In this document: piece after piece, positions 5,851-33,396 of the stretch
Position numbering within the stretch: position 1 is the first letter of the stretch
How the letters are laid out: every line of letters starts with the position of its first letter
Assembly (NCBI GenBank): GCA_033182465.1
Contig: CP137327.1
Location: 310,001-374,000, forward strand
DNA length: 64,000 nt
Direction of reading: 5' to 3'
Source: Sanghuangporus weigelae
Taxonomy: Eukaryota; Basidiomycota; Agaricomycetes; Hymenochaetales; Hymenochaetaceae
Translations under genes and position numbers: made by a program
The notes under the pieces: generated by a model
Databases searched by the model: none
Told to the model about the DNA's origin: nothing
The model's input: only the letters and a program-made list of their open reading frames with translations

Positions 5851-5925
5851 ATTGCTCCGCTTTTAGCATCGTCCGTCTCTTCATACAACTCCCCATACAG
5901 TTGATACGTTCAGATATTACCCACC

Positions 5926-12199: not shown

Positions 12200-15100
12200 C
12201 TAGCTTTCCTGCTCGGAAGAAATGAAGCAGTCTGCCCATTGTTCACCAACGTACGCTCCTGTAAAATCAAGCTTGGTAGAGAACTCGCAGCTGGACACGA
12301 AGACGTTGCGAGGTCCGCAAAGTGTCCGACGAAGATCGGGAGGGATCCACAGAAGAAGGTCTTCGCTGTCGAGTCCGCCATATATCCACCCATAGTCACC
12401 TAAGTACCAGTCCGAGAAATCTCCGTCGATGAATGAAGACGTCGTTGCGTCCCCATTAGTGTCTGCTATGGGATGCTGAAAGTCCGATACATCCCATAGC
12501 CTGACTGTGTTATCCTGAGACCCTGAAATTATCCGCGAGCCGTCGGGGGACAAGGCAACGGTCTGTACGGAGCCCGTGTGGCTGTCGAAGTCGTGAATAG
12601 TCTGCCCGTTTTCCGCCACCCAAACTCGAATTGTGTTGTCCTCGGAGCCAGAGATTAAATATTCTCCGCTGTATGAGAAAAGGATGGATACGACCGCGCC
12701 GTGATGCCCTTCGAAATGGTCAGCAGAAATATGGCCGTTCTCCACGTCCAAGATGATGATGGTTCCATCGTCCATTCCACAGGCTATCTGCATATCATTT
12801 GGAGAGAAGCCGATGGAACAAATAGTCCCGAGTTGCCCAATTGAAAGTTCGGACATTGCTTCCCAAGTTCCTGTGTTCCAAATTTTAATGGTACTTTCTG
12901 AACATGACGCGAATTGTCTGCCCGTCGGCGAGAAAGCCACTGACATGATCGATGACGAGTGGACTAGTGACGGCCTAGCCACGTATTTGTCGATCGCTAT
13001 GTCCCATATTCGCATTTCATTGTCGATGGGGCCGAAGACAAGCACCGTGCCGCCTGGAGATAGAGCCATGCAAGTGTTCCCGGTCAATTCCCCTTCCAAA
13101 GGACCACAAACTACTTTGCCGAAATCTCCCTGCCAGGCTCTGATTGTCTTGTCCTTTGAACTCGATACTAGCACGCCGTCTGGCAAGAAAGCCACACCAG
13201 TAACAGCGTCCTTATGGCCCAGAAGAGGACCATTTACGACGTTTCCGGTCTCAGCGTCCCAGATTATGATCGAGCAATTCCACGAAGCTGACGCGATGCG
13301 ATTTCCATCCGGTGAAAACGTTACGGAGGTGACCGAATTAGTATGCCTTAGAGGTGACTCCGAACTGATCGCCATGGCCCTAGCATCCCAGATTCTGACG
13401 GTTCTATCGCCGGAAGCCGAGGCGATGGATTTTCCATCCGGTGAATATGAAACACAATTAATCCAATTTGTGTGACCCTCAAAAGGGCCTGAGGTAACCT
13501 TTCCACTTTTGGAATCCCAGACTATGATCGTCTCGTCCCAAGAACTAGAGGCGATGTACGATCCACAAGGTGAATATGTCACTGACATCACCGGGTGTGT
13601 GTGCCCTTTGAAAGTGGATATGGCGTTTCCGCTTTCTACCTCCCAGATTTTGATCGTATTATCATCAGAGCCGGAGGCGACATGCATGCCGTCTGGTGAG
13701 TAAGCGACAGACTGGACCAAATCAGAGTGGCCCTCGAAAGGCCCGTAAGCAAGGACTCCATTGTTCACGTCCCAGATTCCAATCGTATTGTCATACGAGG
13801 CCGATGCAAGTCGTGTACTGACAGGAGAAAAAGCAACGGAGGTGACGACTTCTGTGTGTCCAGTCAGCTTGAATATAGCACTTCCATCTGCAGCGTCCCA
13901 TATGATGATCGATTTGTCCCATGAACCCGAAGCCATCCTCCTCCCATCAGGAGACCATGCAACCGAGCTTACAGCGTCAGTATGGCCTTTCAACGTACCG
14001 AGAATCAACTTCCCGTTCCGAACATCCCAGACACTAACCGTCCCGTCCGAAGAACCTGACACGATGCAGCTCCCGTCAGGCGAAAAACAGGCAGTGCTCC
14101 CTTCTAATGGTTCGCCGATCACTTCTCCACTGTCAATGTCCCAAACTATGACAGTGTCGTCATCAGAGGCTGAAACGACGTGCCTTCCATTAGGTGAGAA
14201 GTCGACAGAGTTGGGCCTATCATCATGCTCTTCAAAGACCTTCAAACACAACGGCGGTCTTCTGATACCTTTGCGCTCCACCCGCACCGTAGAAGTCATG
14301 AATTTTGAGTAATGAGCTGCAACTTCTGAATCCTCATCTGCAATCGGAAGCATGGAGACATAAATATGCGGCATGCTCAGCATAATTGGCAAGGCAAACA
14401 GGGATGCAAGCTGACTGGCATTCCGCAGAAAGGATGCGAGGCTTGCATCATGCAGCTGAAATGCAGTCAGTTACCCGCACCCATGAACTTGCTGAATATC
14501 CTACCTCAGCCCAAGAGGAAACTCCAGGAAGTACACGAATAGCGACACGGCTGAATGCTTTCACCAAACTGAGCACCTCGAACCAGAATAAGAGATGACG
14601 ATGTGCGAAGTCCGAGAGCTTCTCAAGGAGATCGGAAGAATAGGGAGCGTCAAGAAGATGCTGGACCCAATGGAGGCACGCGTATTCCAGGTATGATGGT
14701 ATTTGAGATTTGATACGATCTGCAAGATCCGGTACATCATCATTGCGAACAAAGGACGATTTCAGGTCACAGATGTTGAATCGCAGAAGGTCCTTCATGA
14801 CAAGGAAACATCGGTCAATGATCAAACCTTTCGCCCTGGCAATGTCAATGAACCACAAATCGTTCGAGCGTTCAGGTGACATCAGGTAGTCCGAGAAGGA
14901 AGTGTGAAACAGGCTGACGGGACCTCCAGGGCTATATGTGAGAACACTTCGTAGATTCTGCAGAATAAGAATCGAAGACCTCTGAGGCGAAAGACCTAAG
15001 ATACCGTCTATGTCTCCACTCGACACCGGGACCTTGCTCAGCAGCACCAAAGCTAAAACTTTTCGGAATAGCTCTTTCGATCCATCATCACTCCACTTGA

Positions 15101-17384
15101 TGCCCGACGCACTGAGCACCGCAGCATATAGCGCATCCAGTCCGAATCCCGAGAGTGATCGCGAGTCCGATACAAGATGCTCGAGTCGATCCAATTTTGT
15201 GTTGCTATTCTCCACCATTTTCACCGCCGTAGATGCCCAAATAAATAACCCGCCTGCGGCATTTCCGAGCATCTCCATTTTCACTTCCCAAGGATAGCCA
15301 TTTGGTATCTCCACTTCCTCTCGAACAGCACGGTACATTTCGGTACGCAGATAAATAACGACATCCTCTTGACTGACCTTCGACGTGTAGTCTAACTCCA
15401 TCGCTCGCACATGATTCGGCTGCGACGAAAGGACTTTGTCAATGTCCGACTCCCGTCGACTCGCGATGAGGAATCGAAAAATGCTGGGAAGCTTCGAGAA
15501 TTCTCTCAGGAGGTCCATCAATCCACGTCGAGTGTTTGGAGTCCCGCATTCGTCGAGCGCATCAAGCACGATAACAATAGGTCCCGACATCGATGACGCG
15601 GAGGCAACAAGAGGCTGGAGTAGAAGTCTATTGAATTGGTGCACCGAAGATGCTGTAGCAACGTCTTGATCATCCTCGATCGCAGAAAGAATGCTCGATC
15701 CAATCGAAGAATCGAAAATTCCAAGCTTGTATGCGATTGTCCGTATCACCGACGACGGCTCGCTCTTCCCTCTCTCGAAGAAGAGAAACGCACCGAGACG
15801 TGACATGTCCCGGAAATGCTGCGCAATAGTCGAGCTGATCGTACTTTTTCCGGATCCTGCAACGCCGTACAGCCAAAAGACATTCTGCGTCGTCTCAGAA
15901 AACATCCATTCAATGATTTGCTGCCTGATTTCCAATCGCGTTCCAGGAAGGCAAAACGGACGCTCAAATGCATCGAAGTGTCCTGGGTTGAGGTATTGAT
16001 GCAACACTGAGTGAGAAAGCGGGGTCAGGGAACACTCTGAAATAAGATGAAGCACGGACGAAGCTTGTCAACGCCATGCACTGTTCGCATTGAAACGACG
16101 GCAGTGTGGATATTCACTCCAGAATCAATGTCGTTCTTGAGCTTAGCCAAAGTCCGTATAAATCGGTCTATCTTCTGAGATTTGTCCGCCTCAAGCATTC
16201 GACCTAGGGTAAACGATTTGTAGAATGAAAAATAGGAAAGCGGTGTGATTCACTCACCGACAAAACTGTGGCTTGTATACTCCCGGACAAAAATACAGCA
16301 TTCAATAGTCTGCTTGAGGAGCCTGTCTATGGATCGTTGTAGTCCGAAGGCTCTATTTCTGAGTGCTTGGACATCGCAAACAAACTCAAAAGCGTCGCTC
16401 ATAGTCCGTACAAGTTCAATGACCTTTTTGTCGGCTTGGAAGACATTCTTGACCGCCTTAGGGGCATTTACATATGAGCACAGTGCAGAAACAACGCAAG
16501 AGCACGCATTATCGACTCGCCTTGTACAAAGCAGATGTCAACGACCATACGATACTAACAAACGGATGTAACTGCGAAGACAGAATCAGTACCGATGACA
16601 GCACAGATTACAGATCGTTATCAAGGAACTCACTTCGGATAGAGCGTCAATGACTTTTCCAAATACTTCCAGCCTTTGTAACAGTTCACCGACGGCATTG
16701 TATAGCTCATCATGGCTTCCCGTTTGAGTAGCTCCATCATTGACTGACTGTGCGACGTTTGATGCATCTGCCGATTGAACGATTCCGGGTCGCCGAACAT
16801 CTTGGGCGACTCCTCTGATGCTTATATCGACTGCTTCCATGGCATCTATACCCGATAGTCGCAGGAAAATACGACCAATAAACTCTTCTCCACGCTTTGG
16901 CGATACAATATTAAGAGGGACTAAGAATAGGGCATGTTGAGTAAAGCAGGACTTCCGTTGAGATGAATCGCTACCTTCGGCAGAAGATCTTGCCAACAAA
17001 TCAGCAAGATTAATAGCACCCACGCCGACACATGAATCCGGGAGCAGTGTGGATTTATGCATCACTTGAATTTCTAGAGTCTCACTTTCAAAGGAAGCGA
17101 GGCTAGATATGGAGCGTTAGGCGAGAGAGTATTGAAGTGTGAATCCCACACGTACAACGTGATGACTTCATTCCAAGTAGGAGACCTGCTTCTCTCGGCT
17201 GTCCGAGTCCTTTTCGTGACATTTCCGATACTCAGTTCAACGAAAAATTTCGGATCTTTTCGATGCAAAAGATGCTTCCACTGTAGATCCTCCAAGCGAA
17301 TTACTAGAAATCAAGTATGCATCAGCATTCTTGGTCAAATTCATGGTATAAGGACGGACCTTTGAGGCTGTAATGAGTAGACAT
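12200..17384 (-). CDS. NLR-type receptor, C2 - helical (MLKL/HeLo-like) - NACHT - 14 WD40, copy 1
   Basis: STAND NTPase of the fungal NOD-like receptor class, thought to act in non-self recognition and regulated cell death; ligand unknown. Eight coding exons (minus): 17384-17360, 17303-17156, 17102-16634, 16571-16521, 16456-16258, 16203-16060, 16006-14505, 14455-12200; 1597 residues, all phases consistent. Residues about 1-160 form a C2 fold (RSPTWNEVITF, SETLEIQV, LPDSCVGVGAINLADLL). About 195-345 is a helical region with the KQTIECCIFVREY signature seen in basidiomycete MLKL/HeLo-like bundles. The NACHT P-loop GVAGSGKS is at about 393-400 and Walker B PIVIVLDALDEC at about 488-499. From about 917, 14 WD40 repeats fit two seven-bladed propellers, then a tail with LLLWIPPDLRRTLCGP and TKLDFTGAYVGEQW typical of basidiomycetes. 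The intron at 16520-16457 has a GC donor where copy 2 has GT. No frame damage seen. Confidence 0.9.
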
Positions 17385-17429
17385 AGTGTTCAGAGGGAAG
17401 GACAGCTTCATATCCTCAACTCACCAGCT

Positions 17430-18010
17430 ACTCATATATGCCGCCCAAGGCCCTGTGGACGTTGCTGTAGCGATAGACGCCGATACAGATTCAGCCCAAG
17501 TACAAGAGAAAGGGATACCAGTCGCCGAACTAATCATCCGGCGATCAGTACCTGGTGTTCAGAGCATTGACTGTTGAAGTTAGGGGAGTTAAGGTGGATT
17601 GGATCGTTACATCTCTTCGAGCGAAGATGGTATTGCTGCTTAGCCGGATGACACGTAGACGCGTTTCTAGACAAGGCATGCGGTTTCGCAATTACCGGAG
17701 GTCTTGCACCATGTTCTTGCGCGGAAAGCATAACAATAAAACGCTGTATCATATACGTTGCTCAAGGCCCGGTAGACGAGAAGTTGATGTATCGACAGAC
17801 GCTGGTACAAAATTAGCTCAAGTACAAGGAGAATAGGATTAGTCACCGCGTTTAGGGTGGATTTGATATTTACGTCTATTCGAACGAAGATGGCATTGCT
17901 ACGTACTCAGACGCGCTTCTAGACAAAGAAAGCGGCTCTCGTTGTTACCAGAGGTCTTGCACAATGTTCTTCTGTAAAAGCATAGCAACAAAGTGCTGTA
18001 GACATTGAGG
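17430..18010. repeat. Imperfect tandem duplication in the 5' flank of NLR copy 1
   Basis: Two direct units of about 320 and 260 bases start near 17433 and 17748. Shared markers are CAAGGCCC(T/G)G, GACGC(C/T)G(A/G)TAC, GTTTCTAGACAAGG against GCTTCTAGACAAAG, and GGTCTTGCAC(C/A)ATGTTCTT. One copy of the same sequence lies, inverted, upstream of NLR copy 2 at about 27880-28200, so it belongs to the shared 5' flank of the paralogues. It may be a decayed divergently transcribed gene; the longest frames carry GPVDVAVAIDADTDSAQVQ-like peptides but are not maintained. Confidence 0.65.
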
Positions 18011-18829
18011 TTGAATCGTGTCAGGTCGGGGGCCCACAATGGGCACGACAGAAGAAGTTACGTACTAAGCAATTCAGAATACCAATATTTGTCGTGAATG
18101 AGCTAGATGATGAATGAGGTAGATAAACCAGGCACAGTGATGGTTTGTAGGTGTTGTTGGATGGAGTGGCATGATGATGGTGACAAAAGGACAAGAGGCG
18201 ACACGTCAAGAACGCGTCAATTAGTTACTGTAGTATAGATGCGTAGCTCAATTAGGCAGAATAAATCAAATTACTCAACTCTCACTCTCACTATACATGT
18301 ATTATCTAATCACACTGAGCAAAGAAAGAACTGTAAAACCCCGAAATAACCAGATAACAACAAAGGCTTGAAACGGACATAATGAAAATATTTGAAATCC
18401 GTTCCACCACAACAAGATATGAAATTGATAGTAAAGGAACGTAAGCGTCTTTCCTTTTTTTTCTTATCGACTTTATTTGGAATCCCTTTGTTCCCAGAAT
18501 CCTTTTCGTTATTCCAAATCTAGTGTAGTTAAGCACTTCGCCAGGGAATGCATTGTATGTCTGAATTTCAAATCTTTATTGCCATCGCGCGCTACTCTTT
18601 TTTTCGGGTTTTTATTACTCCTTGCCTGCTATGGGATTCAACCAGCAAGTCACCTGGGCAAGACACAAGTTTTCGGTTAGGTGTTCTATGAAAAACGGAA
18701 AAACGTAATTTCTATGTGATCTAGTACAGACTCTACGCAGCAGACTACCTTATCTATGATGCAAGGGTCCATATTATTATATCCCAGCTCACGTTTTGAC
18801 TTCCTTTTTCACGTACAATCACAATTAGT
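18011..18829. other. Intergenic, no gene seen
   Basis: AT-rich sequence with short frames only. Nothing recognisable. Confidence 0.6.
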
Positions 18830-18979
18830 GTTCCGACCATATGCGTATAATGCGTATACGGCTTTCCGTATACGGGATACGGCCGTATCGTATAAGAGAA
18901 AAAGAAGAATATATACGGCCGTATCTGTATAAAAAAAGTCAAAAATTATCGTATACGGCTTATACCCCGTATACGGAAC
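18830..18979. mobile_element. Small palindrome-rich element A with GTTCCG...CGGAAC ends
   Basis: A 150-base block starting GTTCCGACCATATGCG and ending CCCCGTATACGGAAC, giving short terminal inverted repeats. The interior is packed with the palindromes CCGTATACGG and ATACGGCCGTAT. It has no coding capacity. It looks like a miniature inverted-repeat element or a decayed end of a larger DNA transposon; no clear target-site duplication is visible. Confidence 0.55.
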
Positions 18980-19298
18980 TTCACCTCGTGTGCCCTTTGG
19001 AAGGGTATTTGTCCCAGCCTTCCATGCAGGGAACAGATTGAGATTGCTTTCTTCACACATCATGATTCGGGTGTTACCAAGCATGGCGGGACGGTGTCAG
19101 TAAAGAATTTGGCAATATTCAACCAGATAAGTGATTATTCACACACAACCGGTGAGCACATATACACTGATCTGCTGATACCTATGAAAATCATCCCTAA
19201 ACACCATTAATATTATCAGTGAACAGAACCTTTATTGCACCGAGGTAAACTTTGAATACTTTGAAAAAATATTTCTTATTACGCCCTGATTCAGTAGA

Positions 19299-19400
19299 GT
19301 TCCGGAACCTCCGTATACGCCGTACGCCGTATACGGGTGTTCCGTATCCATATGAGAGCTTGACCACCAAATATACGGCCGTATTTTATACGGTCGGAAC
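19299..19400. mobile_element. Small palindrome-rich element B, sister of element A
   Basis: A 102-base block from GTTCCGGAACCTCCGTATACG to TTTATACGGTCGGAAC. It shares the ends and the ATACGGCCGTAT and CCGTATACGG palindromes with element A 320 bases to the left. The outermost ends of A and B (GTTCCGACC at 18830 and GGTCGGAAC ending at 19400) are exact inverted repeats, so A and B could instead be the two terminal regions of one 571-base non-autonomous element. Confidence 0.55.
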
Positions 19401-19857
19401 CGCACAATGATCACAGAAATTGTCACATGCATACATACATACATGCATCATCTCTATGATTACAAGCCGACTAAAGAGACACGAAAAGAAAACAGAAGAG
19501 AGAAAGAGAACAGCAGGAGGAAAAACTAAGTGGGGGTTCGAGAAGATGCAGCAACATTACAAGTAAGCAGTACAAACAGACGAACGCTGAAAAAGTTTAA
19601 ATTAAAAAAAAAGACGAGTAACTCAGAACACAACCATAAGCACCAGACACAATAGACAGATATCATCATCGTTCATATACACAGAGACGCCCACACTCCA
19701 TACCCCATCCAACCGCCATCCCTTCTCGAAGCACCGCACTGAACCCGAAGCAAAGGATATCATTCGTTCCAGACCCCAATAACTCTCACACACTCTCCGC
19801 AGAATAGGCGAGAAGAGTAGAGCCGGGAAGAGAAGAGGAGGAAAACGTAAGGAAACG

Positions 19858-20786
19858 TTATGACATGTTCCCATGTACCAGTGCGTCCCACGCCCGTGCG
19901 CTCTGGAGCGTCGCAATGTATGCGCCCAAGCCCCCGCGATGGCCTGGATGTTCGTGTTGATCCTGATGCTGCTGCGACTTCGCGAACTCTCGTTCACGTT
20001 TTTCTGTAATGTATTTGAGCTCTGCGGGCGTATCTGCGGTCTTGCTCTGAACGTTTCGCGATTCCTTGACGGATTGAGCTTGTTGAGCGGAGAAAGAGTG
20101 AACGTTGCTTGTTGTAAGAATGGGAGGAGCTGCGGAGTGATTGTGGTGCTGATCGTGCAGGTGCATCGAAGACGAGTTTGTGCGCTGTCACCAGATGGAT
20201 ATCATTAAACTCGATCTTTACAATATAGTACTAGTATATGAAAGACATACCTTCAAGATCGGACTAGACTTTGGCGGAGTGACTGGCTGGACATGTGCAT
20301 GCCCATTAACACTCGTCTCTTCATGTATCGTAGAGACAACGCCGCCATGATGCGAGACGTCCTCTGATTCTGCATGCGGATCTATCGGCGTGTGCAAGTG
20401 CGACGGACCTGGATGGTACGGATGTACGAGTCCAGGTCCGAAATGCGCTGGACAGGGCGATGCCGTGCCTGACGAGGCATGTGAGGATGGTGTCGAGAGA
20501 CGCTTCTGTAAGGGGAATGAGGGAATGTGAAGCGAGGAGAATGCAGGATGGAAGACGTACAGGGCTCAGTATACTCCCGAGGGCGTTTCGCAGCCCAAGC
20601 ACATCTTTCTCATGCTCCCGAGTATGCTCGCGCGGGATTGAGTGGTGATGCGGGCGTGGATGGTGCACTGCGATCGGTGCATGCTGCTGAGGATGATTTT
20701 CGGTCGAGCCGATGGTCTGCACGAAGTTCAGTCAGATCATTCAAGGACGAATGCTAAAGCTAAAGAACGAGAGACGGACGCACCAT
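19858..20786 (-). CDS. Histidine-rich protein of unknown function
   Basis: Four-exon model on the minus strand: 20786-20784 (the start codon alone plus upstream leader), 20716-20561, 20505-20251, 20184-19858. All introns are in phase 0, giving 246 residues. The protein is rich in His and Pro (PRPHHHS, HPYHPGPSHLH, LHDQHHNH) with a more structured C-terminus, ELKYITEKREREFAKS followed by GLGAYIATLQSARAW. No known domain, signal peptide or membrane span. The His clusters could bind metal but this is only inference. The one-codon first exon is the weakest part; all other junctions have clear GT and AG sites and keep an open frame. Confidence 0.6.
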
Positions 20787-22686
20787 CGCGGAGACACTAT
20801 ATTTACAAACAGTAATTCCTCTCCTTCGTCGCACCAGCGAGGTGCGTTAAGGTATGAGAAGTCACCAAGAGTAGATAGAGATGCAAGAAAGGGAAGAGGA
20901 GCAGCTAGCCAGCGCCGCGATCTTCTCGCTATCTAATACAGCACACTGCGACCGATGTCGATGTGAGTGGGCGTGTGCTGCTGGCCTGACTTCAAATAAA
21001 ACGTACACGTTTGAGAAACAAATTCCAATTCGAGCGGGGTCACGGACTCGTGGCGGTGGCAGCACGACACACTTGGCCTAAGACCCCTCACTTCCCAATT
21101 CGCTCATCAGCGCTACGGCCCGTTAACGACGACGAATCATGACGCACAGAAGCCAGAGTCCGAGAGCGAGCCAACCGTTCCGTCCCGATGTAATTCAGTA
21201 ATAGAATGTATGTATGTATCGTCCAATTACATACTATTCTGTAAACTACTTCGCATGATGATGATGGTAATTGAGACCGAAAGCCTACTTCAGCAGCTGA
21301 ATGACGCAAGAATCCGCCCAAAATTAGCACGATAGAGAAGATGATGCAACGTCCTATTCACCGACATTCGAGACTTTTCAGAGAAGAGAGAGGACCGACG
21401 ATTTGTCAGTGATTTGATTTGTCGCGCCAACAAAAGTGATCACAAGCTCGACGATGCACCCCACACACTAGTACTTCGGCCCGTGGGGAAATAAACTCTT
21501 GTAGCTTAGTCAGAGTCTGATCCCATCAATCAACCTGATCCTTTCCGATAAATTCGGACAGACTCTCTCGTTTGTTACTTCCCATCATCCCCTCGATGCT
21601 CGTGCTCGCAGGGGGCGTCGAGGAAGTCGGCATCGGCATGCATTGCTTCTCCTCTTTGTTCTATATGTGAATGCGGACTTTGACTCAGCGTCATCGTAAA
21701 GCCGCAGTCTGCTTCCTCTTCCTCTTCCATCCCTCCTCTCATTCTCGTCGAATGCAGCACCTGTGCAGAACCCGCGTTTTCGGAGTAGTAGAAAGAGACA
21801 CAGCCCGAACTATTTAACCTCTTTGTCAAGAGTGTCTTCCATTTTGGTCTGCACATCGACTAGGCAAATATGCCTGCGTGTGACATCCAAGGTGCTAGAT
21901 ACGTCTTGGACAGAGATTAAATGATTTGTGCTGTTCTTTCAACTTCTATATTGTGTGGCAGATGTTCTCGTACTCGAATCAGTCGAAACGGCTTGATATG
22001 GTGCAAACATTATTCGTTGATCAGCCTGTCTTTTTGGTTCTATTTTGTTTGCATAATTACCACCACTAATGTGCTAGCCAGGCTACAGTGCAATTTATGA
22101 AAACATACAATAGCATGAAGGCTTTGGCCTTCCTAGAAGGTCCAGTAGGTCGGATCTCTTTTGAAGAAGGACACCGTCGCTAAATGGACTAGATCAGAAG
22201 AAATCAACGTTCAGCATGACACCATGTAATCAAACTTCGAGCAAAACATATTTGGCTCTAGAAAATGTGAGTCTGGCATGTCTTCAAACCCGAGGGATCA
22301 CATGCTGAAAGCAAGTAGTATTTCATTTCATTCTGCCATGAAAACAGTGAGTTATTTTGAAGAGAGAGTGTGGTGGAGAGCCTGGACCGTTTAGGACAGC
22401 CAAGGCTTGTATATTTGGAAGGACCCTGGCCAAAATATATGAAAAGCAGAGGTTTTCTGAATGCGCTGTAATTTCTGAAGATGCTGTAATCGTCCAGCTG
22501 TCATCACTTTCATCAAAAGAGGCATTTGATGACTTACCGAGACTGGAAATTCTCACATACGCTTCGTCCGTCCAGTCCGCGCAGGCTGCCGCTCGCCGAG
22601 GTCTGACGCGTCGGATTACTCAGCGCATGGCAACTAATACTAGTGTCTACGAATTTATGACCAAAAAACATACCAGAATGGCATCG
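20787..22686. other. Intergenic region upstream of the aldo/keto reductase
   Basis: About 1.9 kb with no recognisable gene. A 93-codon frame on the minus strand at 21575-21856 has an acidic tract but no plausible homology or neighbouring exons. Confidence 0.5.
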
Positions 22687-22694
22687 TATAAATA
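22687..22694 (+). promoter_or_regulatory. TATA box of the aldo/keto reductase gene
   Basis: TATAAATA lies 109 bases upstream of the start codon at 22803, a normal distance for a basidiomycete core promoter. Confidence 0.55.
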
Positions 22695-22802
22695 CAGGCT
22701 CGGTCTGAATTGCGAGTGGCATATCAAGCAACCGACCTCTTTATCTGCTCCAGTCTCTCTGCGCTTTATCCTCTAGCTCCTACCTAACGAAAACAAAAAG
22801 AA

Positions 22803-24145
22803 ATGTCGCTCTGGGCTCCCGCTCCCACCCCGCCGACTCCCTTGGCCCGTTACCGCGTCCTCTCTCCGTTGGCGGGTGTGCGCGTGTCGCCCATCCAGCT
22901 GGGTGCTATGAGCATCGGCGACCAGTGGGGCAAACTCGGTATGGGCGAGATGGACAAGGAGTCGTCGTTCAAGCTCCTCGACGCGTTCTTTGATGCGGGT
23001 GGAAACTTTATTGATACGGCGAATAATTAGTACGTATTCATCTTGAGGTTTTTGTGAAGATAACACGAGCTGATTAGTTGATATGGGTTTGTAGTCAGGA
23101 AGAGACGTCCGAGTTGTTCATCGGAGAATGGGCAGAGAAGCGCGGTATTCGGGACCAGCTCGTTATTGCGACGAAGGTTTGTCGCTTTCTCTTATCTTTC
23201 TGTATGCATCTTGCTAATTTTTATTCCATTTTTAGTACACAACGAACTTCAAGCGCGTAGCTCAGGATGTGACGCACAAAGTCAATTACACGGGAAACAA
23301 CGCGAAGAGTCTCAAAGTCAGCGTTGAAGCGAGCTTGAAGAAGCTGCGGACGTCGTATATCGATATTCTCTATGTGCACTGGTGGGATTGGAACACGTCT
23401 ATCGAGGAAGTGATGGATCACCTGCATAACCTTGTTACTCAAGGCAAAGTTCTCTATCTTGGTATATCTGATTCTCCTGCATGGGTCGTCTCTGCTGCGA
23501 ATCAATACGCGAAGGACCACGCGAAGACGCCGTTCGTGATTTATCAAGGCGCGTGGAACGTCATGGATCGTAGTTTTGAGCGCGAGATTATCCCGATGGC
23601 ACGCAATCTTGGACTTGCTCTCGCACCATGGAATGTTCTTGCGTCCGGTCGTCTTCGTACGGACGCAGAAGAGCAGAGACGATTGGCCACCGGTGAAAAG
23701 GGACGCCTATTAAACCGTCCTGAATGGTTGCGTAATGAGAACGAGAAGAAGATGTGTGCCGCGTTGGAGAAGGTCGCGAAGGAAGTCGGCACGGAACATA
23801 TCACTGCTGTTGCGATTGCGTACGTGATGCAGAAGACGCCTTACGTATTCCCGATCATTGGAGGACGCAAGGTCGAGCACCTCATGGCGAATGTCGAGGC
23901 GCTGAAGATTTCGCTTTCTGACGAGCAGATCAAGTACCTTGAGAGTATTCTGCCATTCGACCCGGGATTCCCGTTGTACTTCATTGTAAGTCGAACTCTT
24001 TTCTTATCTTATCCCTCGCGCTGAATATAATTCATTTTTACAGGGCGACGGGACACCCGAAAGATCCGTGATGCTGTACGACCATGCTGCGCATTGGGAT
24101 CGATGGCCGTTGAAGCAGGCTATCCGACCTGGACCTAATGCATAA
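22803..24145 (+). CDS. Aldo/keto reductase, aryl-alcohol dehydrogenase type
   Basis: NADPH-dependent reductase of the AKR superfamily close to fungal aryl-alcohol dehydrogenases, which interconvert aromatic aldehydes and alcohols in lignin-related metabolism; the exact substrate is inferred from family only. Exons: 22803-23029, 23095-23176, 23236-23985, 24044-24145. The catalytic tetrad can be seen as Asp and Tyr in FIDTANNY (the Tyr codon is split by intron 1), Lys in VIATK and His in ILYVHWWDW. Cofactor-binding regions [11 protein letters not shown] and [11 protein letters not shown] are present, and the C-terminal [13 protein letters not shown] is typical. Soluble, no targeting signal. Length is normal for AADs and nothing is missing. 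Confidence 0.93.
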
Positions 24146-24445
24146 AAATATTGACAATTCGATAGGGTATTTGTAAATTAAAATTGTATTACCTGAACTG
24201 AAATTATAAGAGATGATCATGTGCGAAGTATAATTATCGGTCTTGCATCTAAGCATAATTTGAAATGAGGAATGTGTGTTGACCGCGGCAAGCACGTTGT
24301 GAACTGTACGGGTGTCCAGGAGTTGATGGTTACGTCTGAGGTGCACGTGCTCCTATTTCCTCCTCGACTTTCCGCTTTCCGCGTTCATTCTTATTTATTG
24401 CCTACTCCATCTCTCATTCTGACATCCAACATCTTGCTGGCACTC

Positions 24446-27047
24446 ATGCATCTTCAGGACTTACCCGTCGAGACAATCGCCCGCATATTCGCCTTTCTAG
24501 ACTGGCGGGACCTCCTCGTTGTCTCACAACTCAACACCTTCTTCCGCGATGTCTACCACTCCTTCCCCGAGTTGGAATATTCTTTTCAGCTCCAGGTATC
24601 CGGTATGGTCGACACCAACACTTACATTAACATAAAGAATAATGGATCCGGGGCGCTGGACGTCCGCAGTAAAGTCGAGGAGATAAGACGGCGAGAGCGG
24701 AGCTGGCGCATGATGGACCTCTCGCGCAACGTCACGCGGGTCATAGTGCCACATAGGACGTCGCATATATACGACCTATCTGGCGGTGTGTATCTTTTGG
24801 GAGATTGCAAACACTCGGTCATATCGCGCGATACGCACTCGTTGAGGTTCTTTGACCTAACTAGTTGTGCTGCCAGTGGTAAAGGTAGTACTAGTGGAAG
24901 TGGTAATGTCGATGCTGAACCCGGACCGGCTGTGAGAAGTGATCCGTGGCCGGAAATGAAGATCGAGGGCAATAATATCATCGATATCGGGTTTGGCTTG
25001 CAGGAGTTTGATCTCGTTGCTGTCGTCGGGATAAGACCTGGGTACGTACATACACTCACACACGTGGCATGGTTTGGTTTACTGAGACTTCAAAAATAAC
25101 TACTACTCTACTTCTTCAGGCAAAACGGAGAACCGGGCTCTATCATACTTTCACTTCGGGAGCTCTCTACGGGCGCTCCGCACCCTCTAGCGAAGAACCC
25201 GGACATTGTCGTTGATCCGGTCGAGAACAATCAGCTTCTCCAAGGAAAGTTGTCGATCATGCTGGAGATCGTCGGTCCGCGATTGCTGTTGCTGCTTACT
25301 TGGCACCGGACACTGCAAAGAATTCGTCAGCGAGATGAAGACAAGCTGTTGCTGTTCAATTGGTGGGAAGGCACGAAGGTCTTGGCACGTGGTATCTTTT
25401 AGGCTTTTGGGAAGCTGTCACTTACTTGAATTGTTACATTTTCTAGTCGGAGATTGCGCCGCAACAAACCTGGGACGGGTTCGTCTTCCTCTCGCCGGAG
25501 CTTGTTCTCCTTCCAGATCGCGAACGTGGACTTGAGATCATACGTCTACCAGACGTCACGAAAGGATATTCAGCAAAGGGCTTCGAGCGTGTCCTAAGGC
25601 TCACGCTACCTGCTCTCCAACCGCTCGTCAAAGTCGGTGCGATCCAGTGTCGGTCAGAACCAAATCCGATAGGTGAAACGCATCCGAGCTTGCTGGAAGG
25701 AAGGTCTGATTATGCACAGCGCATGCGCGAGAAGAAGCGCCCGCCCTTCGCACCGGATGCGAAGAAGGCGATTGTTCTGCTGCAAATATATTATCGTGAA
25801 TTCAACAATGAACCGCATGATATCTTCATGGGTCAGTGGGGTGTATTACGGCACAACGTTTCTCTTGTCGTGCATCGCGCGCTATTGCTCAAGCTTGTGG
25901 ACATGTGGGCTAATGAAGCAAGTCCATCGCCACCACCGTCGACCGCGTCGGAGAACGGAGCAGTGAATGCGGGAGCAGAGGGAGATGTGGCTAACGAGCA
26001 AAGAACTGCGGAGAACTTGGACAACGAGACCGAAGACAATGTGCCAGTTGTATCGTGGGCGTACTGGGGTCAACAGTCACACTGGATGGCAGACGACACG
26101 CACGTATCGAATTGGATCACCACAAGCGCGGGGCAAAGATATGTTGGGACAGACGAGGAGGGGCATATTGTCGTTAAGGATTTCAACCCAATTACTGTTC
26201 GGAAGGCTCGCGCGCGGATACTTGCTGCCACAGCCTGGGATTCTGACACCAATATCGTCTGGAATGGGTGTGATGATGACGACGAGATGATGATGAATGG
26301 ATGGCAGGAAGATGGATCGAAGTCCCGCTCTAGTGCAAACATCCCGGGAGGGTTTAATGGTTTGGACTCGGACTCAGACTCGGAGTCCGAGCCTGAGGGC
26401 CAGCAGGTACAGCCAGAATTGGGATCTGAACCACATACAACGGGACTTCCGGAGCTTGGGCTTATGGATGTGAACATGGCCTCCGAGTCTGGATCGCAGG
26501 GGACTGACGATGTGGACATGGCTGCCTCCACTTCGAGTTCCTCCTTCTCGTGGTTGACTCACCCTTCATCCTCATCCGTCGCAGGCGTTGCCTCATTCTC
26601 CTCCATTCCCAGTAACCTCCCACCTCTCTCGAGCCTTAAACGCTTATTCCAACGCCCAGCTCAAAACCACCCGCGAGAAAACCGAAACAAGAATTATCTC
26701 GCTGAACAGAAACAAAGAGAAGAAGAAGAAAAGGAAGAAGAGGATGCATCGTGGAAGAGTGTCCGCCTAATAGAGGGTTACAACGAGGTCGAAGATCTCG
26801 AGCTCCAGCAGCTGTTCAGTCAGGAGTGCAAATGGCCTCTGCCGTGTGTGGAGTACGTGTCGAAGAACCGATATGAGTACCATGGTCTGTTAATGGATGA
26901 AGAGAGGATTATTGGTCTGAAGGTCAGTTTCTACCCCCCCTTTTTCGTTCCTTTGGGAAATGCTGATGATATTGTTTGCTGTTGGTGTGTTTGTAGCATG
27001 ATGAACATACGGGCGCGATTGTAGAGTTTGACGTGTTCACGTTGTGA
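24446..27047 (+). CDS. F-box protein of unknown substrate
   Basis: Starts with a canonical F-box (LPVETIARIFAFLDWRDLLV, residues about 5-24), the Skp1-binding module of SCF ubiquitin ligases. Four exons: 24446-25041, 25120-25378, 25447-26922, 26997-27047, giving 793 residues. The second intron has a weak donor (AAG/GTCTTG) but is required by the phase on both sides. The middle of the protein is a beta-rich region common in basidiomycete F-box proteins (LLLLTWHRTL, WDGFVFLSPELVLLP). The C-terminal third contains disordered acidic and Ser-rich tracts (SDSDSESEPEG near 26375, EEEEKEEEDA near 26715) and closes with a short conserved exon ending VEFDVFTL. The substrate cannot be inferred. Confidence 0.85.
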
Positions 27048-27054
27048 TTCCCAC

Positions 27055-27360
27055 TCTGACACTTTTCCTCCTGAACTCATCGTTATAAGATTTTCGCATT
27101 CGTTAATGCATGTACATTTCGTTATTCTGCTGACTTTTCTTGTGATTTGGCTTTTTACTGTACGTTCATTCATTCATACATACATTCATAAATACATTCA
27201 CTCCTCATTCCTCACATCTTGTCTTACCTCCCATCTCTCCCCGCTTGCTCTTGACTCCCCACGCGATTCAAAACTCCAACTCAATTCTTGTACCATTCTT
27301 GCATGTATCAATAAAGTAATAGTCTTGCTTCTTGGCATGAATAGATGCATCTGTGAAATT
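27055..27360 (+). repeat. 3' flank of the F-box gene, repeated beyond NLR copy 2
   Basis: Direct repeat partner of about 34120-34355. Shared blocks include GCTGACTTTTCTTGTGATTTG against ACTGACTTTATGTGATTTG, TTGCATGTATC...AATAAAGTA, and the following TTGCTTC...AGATGCAT. The pair brackets NLR copy 2 and its 5' flank. Confidence 0.6.
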
Positions 27361-28228
27361 TACTACTACAAGAAGTTGGGAAAACCAGACCTACTTATAG
27401 TAACATATACGTACGTTGCAAGTTTCTTGGCTGCACCTCTAGGATGTCTTACTTTGCCAAGTTCCCGACGGATGGGATAAAGAACATCACAAAAATTTGC
27501 ACGAGATAATATAAGATTAACACCACGTACGGCGTTTATACAAGTGCATATAAGACGTCCAATTTGACATAATATTCGGCAAACTTGACATAATCTGTTA
27601 TAATATCGTGCAAATTCTTATGATGGAGGAAGCAAATTAGTAGTAAAGTTTACATGTAATTAGTGCGGACTGATAGAAAGTATTTGTATTTGTATTTGTA
27701 TTTGAAGCTTGATCCAATTTGTTACTTTAATTACATTACGTAACATATCGTGAGAACAGAACGATCAGGTTGTTTGGTCGCCTCGAACTTGCCACTTCCC
27801 AAGTACTGTCCTTAATGTCTGAATCCTGGAAGTACTTCGTACCTATTCGGTATCCGCAAGAACTGAGCCCAAGAGCTCTGGAAAAATTTCGCCTTGCAAA
27901 GTCGCATGCTTTGTCAAGAAACATGTCTACACATTTCCACGATATCAAGCAATACCCATCCCAATAGAGACGCAGTAATTCAGTCCACCCAAGTTCGACC
28001 ATCAGTGCTGAACTCGATAAACATTGGAAATAGATGTTATGGGAGGCACTGAATATCAGGTGACTCTTCCAGCGACTGATACCGGGCCTTCCTCCTTGCA
28101 TCTGATCTGATTTTGGACCAGTGTCTATTGATGCATCAGTTTCCCATCTATCGGACCTTGTACGGTGGATATAGGTAGTTGGACTTGGTGGGCTGAGGGC
28201 ATGAGACAGTCCTTCCTTTCTCACTACC
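27361..28228. other. 5' flank of NLR copy 2
   Basis: Contains a short TTTGTA pentamer-like tract near 27681-27705 and the flank shared, inverted, with NLR copy 1 (about 27880-28200). A 164-codon frame at 27736-28230 on the minus strand lies in this shared flank but is not conserved as a frame in copy 1. Confidence 0.55.
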
Positions 28229-31200
28229 ATGTCCAGTCACTATAGTCTCGAAGGTTTGTCCTTTTTCCGTAGCCCCGAGAAAGCTGATGCATATTGATTT
28301 CTAGTAATTCGCTTGGAGGATCTCCGATGGAAACGTACTTTTCATTGTATGGATCCGGCACTCTACGTTGCACTGAGTATTGGAGATATCACGGAAAGGA
28401 CACGGACGATTAAGAGAAACAGGTCTCCTACTTGGAATGAAACCATCACGTTGTGCGTGTGGGATTCACATTTCAATACTCTCGCCTAACGCTCCATATC
28501 TAGCCCTGCTTCCTTTGAAAGTGAGACTCTAGAAATTCAAGTCATACATGAATCCACACTGCTCCCGGATTCATGTGTCGGTGTGGGCGTTATTGATCTT
28601 GCTGATTTGTTGGCGAGATCTTCTGCCGAAGGTAGTGATTCACTTCAACGGAAGTCCTGCTTTACTCAACATAACCTGTACTTAGTCCCTCTTAATATTG
28701 TATCACGGAAGCGTGGAGCAGAGTTTATGGGCCGAATCTTACTGCGACTTTCCGATATAGGCACAATGAAGGCAGCTGATATGAGTATCAGAGGAGCCGC
28801 TCAAGCCGTTCAACGGCCCGGAATCGTTCAATCGGCAGATGCACCAAACGTCGTGCAGTCAATCGATGATGTAGCGACACAAACAGGTAACCAAGGTGAT
28901 CTGTACAAGGCCGTCGGTGAACTGTTACGAAGGCTAGAAGGATTTGAAAAGATCATGGACGCTCTATCTGAAGTGAGTCCCTCAATAACCGTGAGGAGCT
29001 CGCCTCGAAATCGCTGCCGACACCGCCTAGATACATCCGTTCTTGAGTATTGCATGCTCGTTGACGTCTGCTTTGTACAAGGTGAGCCCTTATCTCTGGG
29101 GGTTGCACTGTGCTCATTCAATATTGTTGCTCAGGCCGTTAAAAATGTCTTCCGATCTGATCAGAAGATTATTGAGCTTGTTCTAACTATGAGTGAGGAT
29201 TTTGAGTTCACAAGCGATGTTCAGACACTCTGCGACAAGTCCGTCACGCTACAACGATCTATAGACGGGCTTCTGAAGCAGACCATTGAATGTTGTATTT
29301 TTGTCCGGGAGTATACAAGCCACAGTTTTGTCGGTGAGTGAATCACACCGCTTTCCTATTTTTCATTCTACAAATCGTTTACCCTAGGTCGAATGCTTGA
29401 GGCGGACAAATCTCAGAAGATAGACCGATTTATACGGACTTTGGCTAAGCTCAAGAACGACATTGATTCTGGAGTGAATATCCACACTGCCGTCGTTTCA
29501 ATGCGGACAGCGTGTGGCGTTGACAAGCTTTGTCCGTGCTTCATCCTATTTCAGAGTGTTCTCTGACGCCGTTTTCTCAGTGTTGCATCAATACCTCAAT
29601 CCGGGACACTTCGATGCATTCGACCGTCCGATTTGTCTTCCTGGGACGCGTTCTGGAATCAGACAGCATATCATTGAATGGATGTTCTCTGAGACGACGC
29701 AGAATGTCCTTTGGCTGTACGGCGTTGCAGGTTCCGGAAAAAGTACGATCAGCTCGACTATTGCGCAGCATTTCCGGGACATGTCGCGTCTCGGTGCGTT
29801 TCTCTTCTTCGAGAGAGGGAAGAGCGAGCCGTCGTCGGTGATACGGACAATCGCATACAAGCTTGGAATTTTCGATTCTTCGATTGGATCGAGCATTCTT
29901 TCTGCGATCGAGGATGATCAAGACGTTGCTACAGCATCCTCGATGCACCAATTCAACAAACTTTTACTCCAGCCTCTTGTTGCTTCTGCCTCATCGATGT
30001 CAGGACCTATCGTTATCGTGTTTGATGCGCTCGACGAATGCGGGACTCCAGACACTCGACGTGGATTGATGGACCTCGTGAGAGAATTCACGAAGCTTCC
30101 CAGCATTTTTCGATTCCTCATCGCGAGTCGACGGGAGTCGGACATTGACAAAGTCCTTTCGTCGCAGCCGAATCATGTGCGAGCGATGGAGTTAGACTAC
30201 ACGTCGAAGGTCAGCCAAGAGGATGTCGTTATTTATCTGCGTACCGAAATGTACCGTGCTGTTCGAGAGGAAGTGGAGATACCAAATGGCTATCCTTGGG
30301 AAGTGAAAATGGAGATGCTCGGAAATGCCGCAGGCGGGTTATTTATTTGGGCATCTACGGCGGTGAAAATGGTGGAGAATAGCAACACAAAATTGGATCG
30401 ACTCGAGCATCTTGTATCGGACTCGCGGACACTCTCGGGATTCGGACTGGATGCGCTATATGCTGCGGTGCTCAGTGCGTCGGGCATCAAGTGGAGTGAC
30501 GAGGGATCGAAAGAACTATTCCGAAAAGTTTTAGCTTTGGTGCTGCTGAGCAAGGTCCCGGTGTCGAGTGGAGACATAGACGGTATCTTGGGACTTCCGC
30601 CTCAGAGGTCCTCGATTCTTATTCTGCAGAATTTACGAAGTGTTCTCACGTATAACCCCGGAGGTCCTGTCAGCCTGCTTCACACTTCCTTCTCGGACTA
30701 CTTGATGTCACCTGAACGCTCGAACGATTTGTGGTTCATTGACATTCCCAAGGCGAAAGATCTGATCATTAACCAATGCTTCATAGTCATGAAGAACCTT
30801 CTGCGATTCAACATCTGTGACCTGAAATCGTCCTTCGTTCGCAATGATGATGTACCGGACCTTGCGGATCGTATCAAATCTCAAATACCATCACACCTGG
30901 AATACGCGTGCCTTTATTGGGCTCAGCATCTTCTTGACGCATCATATTCTTCCGACCTCCATGACCAGCTCTCGTACTTTGCGTATCGCCAACTTTTATT
31001 CTGGTTTGAGGTACTCAGTTTGTTGAACTTATTTGGCCGTGTTGCCACGCGCTCTCTTCGCGAAGTCCTGACCTGGATTGTGGTAAAAAATCCGTCAAAT
31101 TCATGGGACCAGGAAACTGACTTCTTTTCAGCCAAAGGATGCAAGTCTTGCATCCTTTCTTCAGGACGCCAGTCGTCTTGCCTCCATGTTTTCCTCGCCA

Positions 31201-33396
31201 ATTATGCAAAGCACGCCACACGTTTATATCTCCATGCTTCCTTTCTGGGGTGACGATTCGGAGTTTGTAGCTCATTACTCGAAATGCATGGCTTCTATGG
31301 TACGGGTAGAGCACAGAGGTGTCAAAAGACCTCCATTGTGTTTGAAGGTTCTGGAAGGGCATTCCGGACGTGTGTCCTCCGCCGCCTTCTCGCCTAATGG
31401 GATGCACGTCGCCTCAGCCTGTAATGACAACACGGTCCTAGTGAGGGACATTGACAGCGGAGACGTGATTTACAGGCCATTAGAAGGGAGGACTGCCCGC
31501 TTTTCACCTGACGGGAGCCGCATCGTATCGGGTTCTAAAGACGGCACGCTTAGAGTATGGAATGCTCGAGACGGGAGTTTAATTCTTGGTCCGTTGGAGG
31601 GTCATACCAAGCTTGTGAACTCAGTCGCTTGGTCTCCTGATGGGACGAGGATCGCTTCGGGTTTACACGACAATACGATCATCATATGGGACGCTGCAGA
31701 CGGAAGGGCTATATTTAGACTGACCGGACACACAGACTGGATTAATTCTGTCGCCTTTTCTCCTGACAGTGCGCGTCTTGCTTCAGGCTCCGAAGACAAA
31801 ACTATTAGAATCTGGGATGTAAATAATGGTCTACTTGCTTTCGGGCCTTTCGAACACTCTTCAGAGGTTAAGTCCGTCGCATACTCTCCAGACGGCAAGC
31901 AAGTCGTCTCCGGTTCCGTTGATAGAACAATCAAAGTCTGGGAAGTGGAAAGTGGAAGTGTCGTTTCCACTTTCAAAGGACACACAGATTGGGTGATGTC
32001 AGCGGCGTATTCACCTTGCGGGTCGTACATAGTCTCTGGTTCCTTGGACAAGACAATCATAGTCTGGGATGCCAAAAGTGGAAATATTGCTTCTGGCCCT
32101 TTTGAGGGTCACACAGAATATGTCTATTGCGTTGCGTATTCACCAAATGGAAAATACATCGCCTCGGGTTCCGATGACAGAACGGTCAGAATCTGGGATG
32201 CTAGTTTCAAAGCGATTAGCTCAGAATCATCTCAAAAACATACAGCCTTCATCATGTCCCTCGCGTTTTCGCCGGATGGAAGGCGAATTGCGTCTGCTTC
32301 GGTTGACGGCTCGATCATAGTTTGGGACGCCCAGACAGGAGACATTGTAGCCGGGCCTCTACTGGGGCATACGAAGGCTGCTATTTGCGTGGCATTCTTG
32401 CAAGATGGCTTGCGGCTTGTCTCAGGTTCATCCGACAAGACGATCAGGATTTGGGGAGCAGGTTCATACGAAGTAGTCTGTGGTCCTTTGGAGGGAGAAT
32501 TGACCGGCACGACTTGCATGGCTGTTTCCCCAGACGGCATGACGCTCGTCTTCGGTCTCATCGACAAGGCAATGAGAGTATGGAGCATAGCGAGTGACAG
32601 TTTCATCGCTGGACCGTCTTTGTTCCACAAGAAGCTTGGCTCGATAGCCTTCTCGCCGGGCGGCAAGCAATTTGCATCAGGCTCGGGTAATATGATCAAA
32701 GTCTGGAACACAGAGACATGGAAAGTAACATCCGAACTTTCAATCAAGCAATCCGGGTCACTCAGTTCCGTTTGCTTCTCTCCAGACGATACGCGGATTG
32801 CCTGTGGCACAGACAGAGGAAACATCACTATTCTTAACACGGGGAATGGACATATCGTTGCTCGTCTTGTCGAATGGAAAGACGACCTGGTCACGTCTAT
32901 CCTTTACTCGCATGACGGGGGATATCTTATCACGGCGTCCGGGATCGCCAGAATTCGAATCTGGAACGTAGAAAATCACCAGATTCTTTGCAGTCTCGAA
33001 GACCACTTAGTCTGGATGAAGACTCTTGCCTTGTCCCTTGATGGTTCCCGAATAGTTGCACCTTCCTGTGATAATACAGTCAGGGTGTGGGATGTGTCAG
33101 ACATTCTCCAGCATCCTTCAGAGGACTCCAGAAATGCCGCGATGAGGTCTTCGTCAACCAATAGAGATTTTTCGGACTGGGTCCTAGGTGACAATGGGTG
33201 GATAAAATATGGCGGACCGAAAGGTGACGATCTTCTCCTGTGGATTCCTCCTGACCTTCGTCGAACGCTTTGTGGGCCTCGCAACATATCCGTGTTGAAC
33301 TGCGATTTCTCTACCAAGCTTGATTTTACAGGAGCGTGCCTTGGTGAACGATGGACGGACTGCTTCATTACTCCCGAACAACTTCAAGAAGAATAG
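28229..33396 (+). CDS. NLR-type receptor, C2 - helical (MLKL/HeLo-like) - NACHT - 14 WD40, copy 2
   Basis: Inverted paralogue of the gene at 12200-17384. Exons: 28229-28253, 28305-28452, 28504-28972, 29031-29081, 29135-29333, 29388-29531, 29581-31082, 31132-33396; 1600 residues. The first seven exons are the same lengths as in copy 1 (25, 148, 469, 51, 199, 144, 1502 bases). C2 signature: RSPTWNETITF and VGVGVIDLADLL. Helical region: KQTIECCIFVREYTSHSFV. The P-loop GVAGSGKS and Walker B PIVIVFDALDEC (Leu to Phe relative to copy 1) are intact. Fourteen WD40 repeats and the tail LLLWIPPDLRRTLCGP follow. By eye, NACHT is about 95% identical to copy 1, whereas C2 and WD40 repeats are roughly 65-75% identical. 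All splice sites are GT-AG here, including GTGAGC where copy 1 has GCGAGT. Both genes appear intact. Confidence 0.9.

What the first reader, a model, noticed from the sequence alone, without database searches (positions are those of the whole stretch)
12200..33396. Inverted pair of intact NLR receptors with a converted NACHT core
Two full-length C2-helical-NACHT-WD40 genes lie head to head in inverted orientation about 10.8 kb apart. Coding exons 1-7 match in length to the base. A run of 111 residues in the NACHT exon (about 15163-15495 and 30096-30428) is identical, and the DNA there is nearly identical at silent sites too. C2, helical and WD40 parts differ at roughly a quarter to a third of residues. 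A sharp island of identity inside diverged genes is what ectopic gene conversion produces. It would keep the ATPase switch common while letting the sensor (WD40) and the N-terminal module drift apart. Sequence comparison is by eye.
Basis: partly seen in the sequence, partly recalled or inferred. Interest (0 to 1): 0.85.

Follow-up and report, generated by a model that had tools for sequence, protein, structure and literature searches.

The report
Fungal NLR pair with converted core
Two immune-receptor-like genes of a fungus share a recently copied stretch in the middle of their switch domain, and related genes in the same genome suggest that this stretch comes in a few very different versions that are copied within a version but hardly between versions.

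Summary
A (17384-12200, -) and B (28229-33396, +) are intact nine-exon C2-helical-NACHT-WD40 genes, divergent, 10.8 kb apart; exons 1-8 match in length. A 112-residue run is identical, with 2 silent mismatches in 336 bases. Silent difference is 0.02 in the core and 0.45 in WD40; one intron is identical, 54/54; global permutation p=0.0005. Recent ectopic gene conversion is the best reading.

The wider story changes. Three paralogues (C, D, E) lie about 90-115 kb away. C and E show a second converted NACHT island; B's WD40 is nearer to C/D/E than to A. The identical run is not the Walker A/B switch but the segment behind it. Between classes (AB / CE / D) this segment is the MOST diverged part, at subfamily level, while the P-loop part is shared. 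A second NLR cluster repeats this; a third does so weakly. Core class and WD40 similarity are uncorrelated.

Class-restricted NACHT conversion is published for zebrafish NLR-B30.2 genes; my searches found no fungal report. An oligomer-matching function is inferred, untested.

The parts
12200..17384 (-). Gene A, C2-helical-NACHT-WD40, coding span; exons 17384-17360, 17303-17156, 17102-16975, 16920-16634, 16571-16521, 16456-16258, 16203-16060, 16006-14505, 14455-12200; intron 5 has a GC-AG boundary
   Evidence: models; domains
28229..33396 (+). Gene B, same architecture; exons 28229-28253, 28305-28452, 28504-28631, 28686-28972, 29031-29081, 29135-29333, 29388-29531, 29581-31082, 31132-33396
   Evidence: models; domains
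15159..15494 (-). A: 112-residue identical run (core segment, from just before sensor 1 into the following helical segment)
   Evidence: 336 bases, 2 silent mismatches
30093..30428 (+). B: 112-residue identical run
14679..16292 (-). A: widest conversion-like fragment shared with B (A residues 268-770, 37 mismatches in 325 polymorphic third positions)
   Evidence: coordinates converted with the exon table
29299..30908 (+). B: widest conversion-like fragment shared with A
   Evidence: coordinates converted with the exon table
16086..16297 (-). A: 212-base exact match to B that spans the end of exon 6, intron 6 (54/54) and most of exon 7
29294..29505 (+). B: the same 212-base exact match
15456..15923 (-). 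A: Pfam NPHP3_N P-loop NTPase domain
   Evidence: residues 49-204 of the translated frame
29667..30131 (+). B: Pfam NPHP3_N P-loop NTPase domain
   Evidence: residues 64-218 of the translated frame
12200..14455 (-). A: exon 9, WD40 repeats and C-terminal tail
31132..33396 (+). B: exon 9, WD40 repeats and C-terminal tail; codons 833-1389 nearer to C, D, E than to A

Best explanation
A and B are paralogous fungal NLR genes whose middle part (end of exon 6 to about three quarters of exon 8, centred on the segment behind the P-loop domain) was recently overwritten from one copy to the other by ectopic gene conversion [shown as far as sequence can; my odds 0.95]. They belong to a family of five on this chromosome (A, B, C, D, E) in which every gene is a mosaic. 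The core segment exists in deeply diverged classes (AB, CE, D) that are homogenised within a class and hardly exchanged between classes, whereas the P-loop part is homogenised across classes and WD40 sensors are related across classes; an independent NLR cluster on contig 6 shows the same [shown as a pattern; odds 0.8 that it is a general feature of this repertoire]. How it works, inferred [odds about 0.4]: the WD40 propeller is the sensor, its top face under diversifying selection; the core sets which NLR protomers can assemble with each other, so selection removes mixed cores while conversion within a class keeps protomers compatible; sensors can then be re-paired with any class.
For: dS of A-B by exon: NACHT exon 8 0.19, exon 7 0.03, WD40 exon 9 0.68; C-E 0.15 and 0.34. 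Silent differences in the core: AB 2/94, CE 5/91, between classes 0.60-0.86 of sites. GENECONV-like fragments AB and CE in NACHT, B with C/D/E in WD40, global p 0.0005-0.0015 for AB and CE in both site sets. Intron 6 of A and B 54/54 identical while intron 5 is 39/50: no coding constraint explains that. Genome search: B's NACHT is nearest to A (91% aa, next 73%), B's WD40 is nearest to three other genes (81-82% nt) and 74% to A. Control: between subfamilies (55 pairs) the core is no more diverged than WHD (nt identity 0.61, 0.62), so it is not simply fast; between F1 classes it stands at that same 0.61 while flanks are 0.86/0.71/0.80. Second family F2 (nine genes, 36 pairs): core pS above both flanks in 25 of 31 between-class pairs, below both in 4 of 5 within-class pairs. 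Core identity does not follow WD40 identity: Mantel r -0.09 (F1) and 0.03 (F2), but follows WHD, 0.96 and 0.53. WD40 top-face registers 7, 9, 25, 27: dN/dS 1.19 against 0.30 elsewhere among B-E, 2.0 against 0.22 for A-B, the positions named for HET-D/E in PMC1805685 (passage).
Against: F2 classes were drawn from core identity itself, so 'low within class' is partly circular; the pairs are not independent. F3 (contig 7) is weaker: core above both flanks in 10 of 21 pairs, below in none. In the five-gene test the AB split is not rejected in WD40: the conflict there is in branch length, not in unrooted topology. Protein AU tests do not reject CDE in the core (p 0.138; nucleotides reject it, p 0.002 and 0.013), and no test rejects monophyly of A-E in the core (p 0.08-0.19). 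ABD is rejected in the P-loop part (p 0.030 protein, 0.039 nt; 0.052 on codon positions 1+2) but in WHD only on protein (0.007; nt 0.081 and 0.28). In C2 exon 3 C and E are not a pair (dS 1.06). Nothing here tests oligomerisation; the structure model failed (pLDDT 35.5). No reads, no second strain.
Confidence: 0.6

Rival explanations
1. Neutral, similarity-limited conversion. Paralogues convert wherever they are similar enough; once a core had diverged past the threshold for strand exchange it stopped converting and kept diverging, while P-loop and WD40 stayed convertible. No selection for matched cores is needed.
For: Bimodal core divergence (F1 pS 0.02-0.06 or 0.56-0.92) is what a homology threshold gives; same-class genes show the lowest, other-class genes the highest divergence.
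Against: The core is not less constrained than WHD over the long term (pN/pS 0.37 and 0.36, nt identity 0.61 and 0.62 between F1 and F4, 55 pairs), so it is unclear why the barrier arose at the core in two families.
Confidence: 0.35
2. Core import. C/E (and perhaps D) received their core by an older conversion from another NLR subfamily; the flanks are the true family history. Later A-B and C-E conversions are ordinary.
For: In the protein core tree A, B, D group with C6_1532 and C6_1565 (support 92) apart from C, E, while P-loop and WHD trees hold A-E together (96, 99).
Against: No close donor among the paralogues examined: best match to the C/E core is 0.64 nt; monophyly of A-E in the core is not rejected (p 0.08-0.19). 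The donor may be lost, or lie in another strain.
Confidence: 0.3
3. A and B are a working sensor/helper pair, as divergent NLR pairs in plants are, and the shared core is their common assembly face.
For: Divergent orientation, both intact, matched core and P-loop part; PMC12258605 describes head-to-head plant pairs (passage).
Against: 10.8 kb with other open frames lies between them, no shared promoter; both have full C2 and WD40 parts; C and E, the other matched pair, are in direct order with D between them.
Confidence: 0.1
4. Recent duplication without conversion: the WD40 and N-terminal parts simply evolve faster.
For: WD40 top-face positions are under diversifying selection.
Against: Silent sites and introns differ between parts too; B's WD40 is silently nearer to C/D/E than to A.
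Confidence: 0.03
5. Assembly artefact: the NACHT part of one copy was filled with reads of the other.
For: No reads were available to exclude it.
Against: Island broken by mismatches, longest exact runs 212 (AB) and 245 (CE) bases, both frames open; two independent pairs; graded decline away from the core.
Confidence: 0.02

Closest known systems
Zebrafish NLR-B30.2 family (PMC4852459; passages and section 3.1, part 1 of 2, seen)
   Same: NACHT groups with low dS within (0.04-0.12 in the table passage) and saturated dS between groups; sensor domain related across groups; authors infer conversion within NACHT groups and suggest that only same-group proteins should multimerise.
   Different: Animal genes, B30.2 sensor, hundreds of genes; there the whole FISNA-NACHT exon marks the group, here a segment of about 125 codons inside one exon, with the P-loop part shared across classes.
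Podospora anserina NWD / HET-D, HET-E family (PMC1805685, abstract and passages)
   Same: NACHT-WD40 fungal NLRs; diversifying selection at the same four WD40 registers by spacing (7, 9, 25, 27); recombination among paralogues.
   Different: There WD40 repeats undergo concerted evolution within and between genes; here blades of one gene are only 47-50% alike in protein and keep their place; conversion hits the NACHT part. N-terminal HET domain there, C2 here.
Basidiomycete C2-NLRs (PMC4986451, passages)
   Same: The C2 N-terminal class is noted there as found in a few basidiomycota only.
   Different: No sequence comparison with those proteins was made here; the passages seen treat repertoires, not conversion.
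Plant NLR clusters and head-to-head pairs (passages of PMC12258605)
   Same: Clustered paralogues with conversion and unequal crossing-over proposed.
   Different: LRR sensors and NB-ARC domains; the fungal survey itself only raises conversion as a possibility in the passages seen.

Membership tests
Fungal NLR (STAND NTPase receptor) | NACHT-type P-loop NTPase domain with Walker A and B | tested here: met
   NPHP3_N 95 and 96.8 bits against 24.8; PF05729 NACHT itself 21.5 and 23.6, under its cut-off 26.7; GVAGSGKS and DALDEC present
Fungal NLR (STAND NTPase receptor) | C-terminal superstructure-forming repeats | tested here: met
   WD40 11 and 13 stretches
Fungal NLR (STAND NTPase receptor) | N-terminal effector domain that acts in immunity or cell death | tested here: inconclusive
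   C2 found over cut-off; its action is not testable here
HET-D/HET-E (HNWD) family | N-terminal HET domain | tested here: not met
   C2 in its place in A, B and D, the three scanned
HET-D/HET-E (HNWD) family | WD40 repeats of one gene nearly identical (about 85% aa, PMC4986451 passage) | tested here: not met
   mean 0.47-0.50 aa over seven blades in each of five genes, maximum 0.65; no WD40-length tandem array in B
HET-D/HET-E (HNWD) family | Diversifying selection at four top-face WD40 positions | tested here: met
   dN/dS 1.19 against 0.30 (B-E), best of 35 circular shifts; counting method only, seven blades, register matched by spacing
HET-D/HET-E (HNWD) family | Controls heterokaryon incompatibility | not testable with these tools
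   needs crosses or strain pairings
Ectopic gene conversion | Island of identity at silent sites and introns inside diverged genes | tested here: met
Ectopic gene conversion | Relationship of parts changes along the gene against third copies | tested here: met
   topology tests mixed
Ectopic gene conversion | Unconverted state seen in other strains | not testable with these tools
   the genome has no relatives in the collection
Class-restricted NACHT conversion as in zebrafish NLR-B30.2 | Low dS within, saturated dS between NACHT classes, sensor domain not following the classes | tested here: met
   F1 and F2; F3 weak

The most novel reading that the evidence does not exclude
This fungus runs its NLRs as a combinatorial two-part system: the core segment is an assembly code with a few classes kept identical within a class by gene conversion and kept apart between classes by selection, and the WD40 sensors are re-dealt among classes, so each sensor can be wired to any of several mutually insulated assemblies.
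Probability: 0.25. Interest if true: 0.85.

Novelty: new variant of a known kind. Interest (0 to 1): 0.6.

Why it matters
How large NLR repertoires avoid unwanted cross-activation while diversifying their sensors is open. A compact fungal family with a sharply bounded, class-specific segment, recurring in an independent cluster, would make the compatibility hypothesis (proposed for zebrafish) testable on a piece of about 110-125 residues. It also shifts the fungal picture: known concerted evolution of fungal NLRs concerns the WD40 repeats, here the homogenised piece lies in the NACHT part.

Tried and rejected
Recent duplication with faster sensors: rejected on silent sites and introns. 'Core is just less constrained': not borne out between subfamilies. 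RIP-like mutation as the cause of divergence: GC3 and TpA/ApT of the five genes show no outlier in the core (simple indices only). A close donor for the C/E core: none over 0.64 nt among the 37 NACHT sequences aligned. Structure of the NACHT part: AlphaFold on A and B alone gave pLDDT 35.5, pTM 0.25 and was not used; phmmer of B's NACHT exon against the PDB gave 0 hits at E 0.01. Species: not identified; Agaricomycetes is only a guess from C2-NLRs and short introns. Literature: eight searches; I opened passages of three fungal NLR papers and one zebrafish paper, the rest are listings only, and subscription papers are not held.

One search listed 68 match rows; 37 sequences were aligned and 33 used in the trees (C6_1512, C3_3051, C11_750 and C7_2113 dropped as partial). 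Four of nine stretches fetched (L064-L067) were not used. Seven of the 12 WD40 motif sites found entered the register count. One search also printed a mis-registered base comparison of the identical run; one search replaced it. One search's five registers were picked after seeing the data; one search repeated the count with the four published ones.
Full report
What was checked. The window is contig 10, 310001-374000, of a 33.87 Mb genome in 13 contigs. A self-comparison finds one large inverted repeat, 12210-17426 against 33380-28186, 81% over 5.2 kb, and base identity varies along it from about 0.55 to 1.00. Hand-made gene models give two intact nine-exon genes, with exon lengths 1-8 equal to the base. 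Domains: C2 at the N-terminus, a helical stretch without a Pfam match over its cut-off, NPHP3_N/NACHT and WD40. The 112-residue identical run lies at B 30093-30428 and A 15494-15159, with two silent mismatches.

Family. Searching the genome with B's NACHT exon gives 68 rows, best A (91% aa), then 73% and below. With B's WD40 DNA the best hits are three genes at contig 10, 434-454 kb (81-82%), and A follows with 74%. These three, C (439431-434334), D (448399-443286) and E (456989-451799), all on the - strand, are intact by the same gene model.

Conversion. By exon, A-B dS is 0.48 (exons 1-2), 0.18 (3), 0.46 (4), 0.79 (5-6), 0.03 (7), 0.19 (8), 0.68 (9); C-E is 0.14 (5-6), 0.26 (7), 0.15 (8), 0.34 (9). 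In the core (codon columns 480-620) silent differences are 2 of 94 (AB) and 5 of 91 (CE), but 56-79 of 91-94 for the eight other pairs. A GENECONV-like test on strictly silent sites (446) and on all variable third positions (964), 2000 permutations, gives AB and CE fragments in the NACHT exon with global p 0.0005 to 0.0015, and B-C, B-D, B-E fragments in WD40 with global p 0.0005 in the mismatch-tolerant version; in the strict version these are 0.0005 or 0.025 (BC), 0.71 or 0.004 (BD), 0.055 or 0.080 (BE); DE in WD40 gives 0.0005 tolerant, 0.059 or 0.30 strict. Intron 6 is 54/54 identical between A and B; intron 7 is 49/49 between C and E; A-B introns 4, 5 and 8 are 37/56, 39/50 and 36/49.

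The class pattern. Block means in family F1 (A-E): between classes (8 pairs) nt identity P-loop 0.86, core 0.61, WHD 0.71, HD2 0.80; within classes (2 pairs) 0.96, 0.98, 0.93, 0.90; between F1 and F4, a set of 11 other paralogues (55 pairs), 0.67, 0.61, 0.62, 0.69. So the core differs between classes of one family as much as between subfamilies, while over the long term it is no faster than WHD (pN/pS 0.37, 0.36). Family F2 (nine genes, contig 6, 2.12-2.34 Mb) shares little with F1 in sequence (0.49 nt in the P-loop block) and repeats the pattern: groups 2212/2303/2334, 2312/2327, 2123/2204, and 2318 and 2131 alone. Core pS exceeds both flanks in 8 of 8 between-class F1 pairs and 25 of 31 F2 pairs; it is below both in 2 of 2 and 4 of 5 within-class pairs (classes drawn from the core itself). 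F3 (seven genes, contig 7): above both in 10 of 21, below both in 0 of 21, so weak; C7_2268 is the clearest, with core best match 0.64 outside its family and flanks 0.79-0.81 inside. Along the clusters, same-class genes alternate with others (C-D-E; 2303-2312-2318-2327-2334 run a-b-c-b-a; places).

Trees. In protein trees of 33 paralogues A-E hold together in P-loop (96) and WHD/HD2 (99) with C, D, E as a clade (100, 100); in the core A, B, D form a clade (100), and {A, B, D, C6_1532, C6_1565} has support 92, apart from C and E. Tests are less sharp. AU for 'C, D, E together' in the core: protein p 0.138 (not rejected), nucleotides 0.002, codon positions 1+2 0.013. 'A, B, D together': P-loop 0.030, 0.039, 0.052; WHD/HD2 0.007, 0.081, 0.281. 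A-E monophyly in the core is not rejected (0.187, 0.136, 0.080). With five genes alone, the WHD segment accepts only AB|CE|D, the first WD40 segment rejects AB|CE|D but accepts AB|DE|C and three topologies without AB, and the second WD40 segment is nearly unresolved (12 of 15 accepted).

Sensor. Over seven WD40 blades, the registers that by spacing correspond to positions 7, 9, 25, 27 of PMC1805685 (passage) have dN/dS 1.19 against 0.30 elsewhere among B-E (six pairs), 2.0 against 0.22 for A-B and 1.04 against 0.20 for A with C, D, E, and are the best of 35 circular shifts. Counts for A-B are small (14 synonymous sites in the four registers). Blades of one gene are only 47-50% alike in protein, unlike HET-D/E. 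Core and WD40 identities are uncorrelated across pairs (Mantel r -0.09, p 0.79, five genes; 0.03, p 0.36, nine genes); core and WHD are correlated (0.96, p 0.008; 0.53, p 0.007).

Mechanism. Shown: a recent copy event between A and B at DNA level, a second between C and E, and different histories for P-loop, core and WD40. Inferred: the core is where protomers must match, the C2-helical part carries the output, the WD40 face senses. The zebrafish paper reaches a like proposal for its NACHT groups (section 3.1, part 1). The neutral rival, conversion limited by similarity, explains the bimodality without selection and remains serious; it does not by itself say why the same segment is affected in two families.

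Novelty. In eight searches I saw no report of conversion in the NACHT part of fungal NLRs; the Sordariales survey raises conversion only as a possibility in the passages seen. Many fungal papers are not held. I file it as a new variant of a known kind.

Noticed in passing
L036 (C6:1511140-1515039) and L038 (C3:3050356-3054255): Two partial NLR copies on different chromosomes are 96.5% identical over about 2.1 kb with unrelated flanks; the C3 copy has a stop in frame. It looks like a transposed fragment.
   Followed up: partly
window 5863-7394 and 7931-9488: Direct repeat of 1.5 kb, 86% identical; a frame in it (6511-6993) has a weak short-chain dehydrogenase match under the cut-off; no further full copy was reported in the genome search.
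   Followed up: partly
window 25447-27024 (+): Open frame of 525 codons just upstream of gene B without any Pfam match up to E=1.
   Followed up: no
window 16520-16457: Intron 5 of gene A begins GC instead of GT (GC-AG); B has GT there.
   Followed up: no
G000 C6:2303-2334 kb: Five neighbouring NLRs carry core classes in the order a-b-c-b-a, which simple tandem duplication does not give.
   Followed up: no
G000 C6:2032043-2032270 and C1:210683-210910: Two short NLR remnants on different contigs with the same length, score and stop pattern, perhaps carried by a repeat.
   Followed up: no
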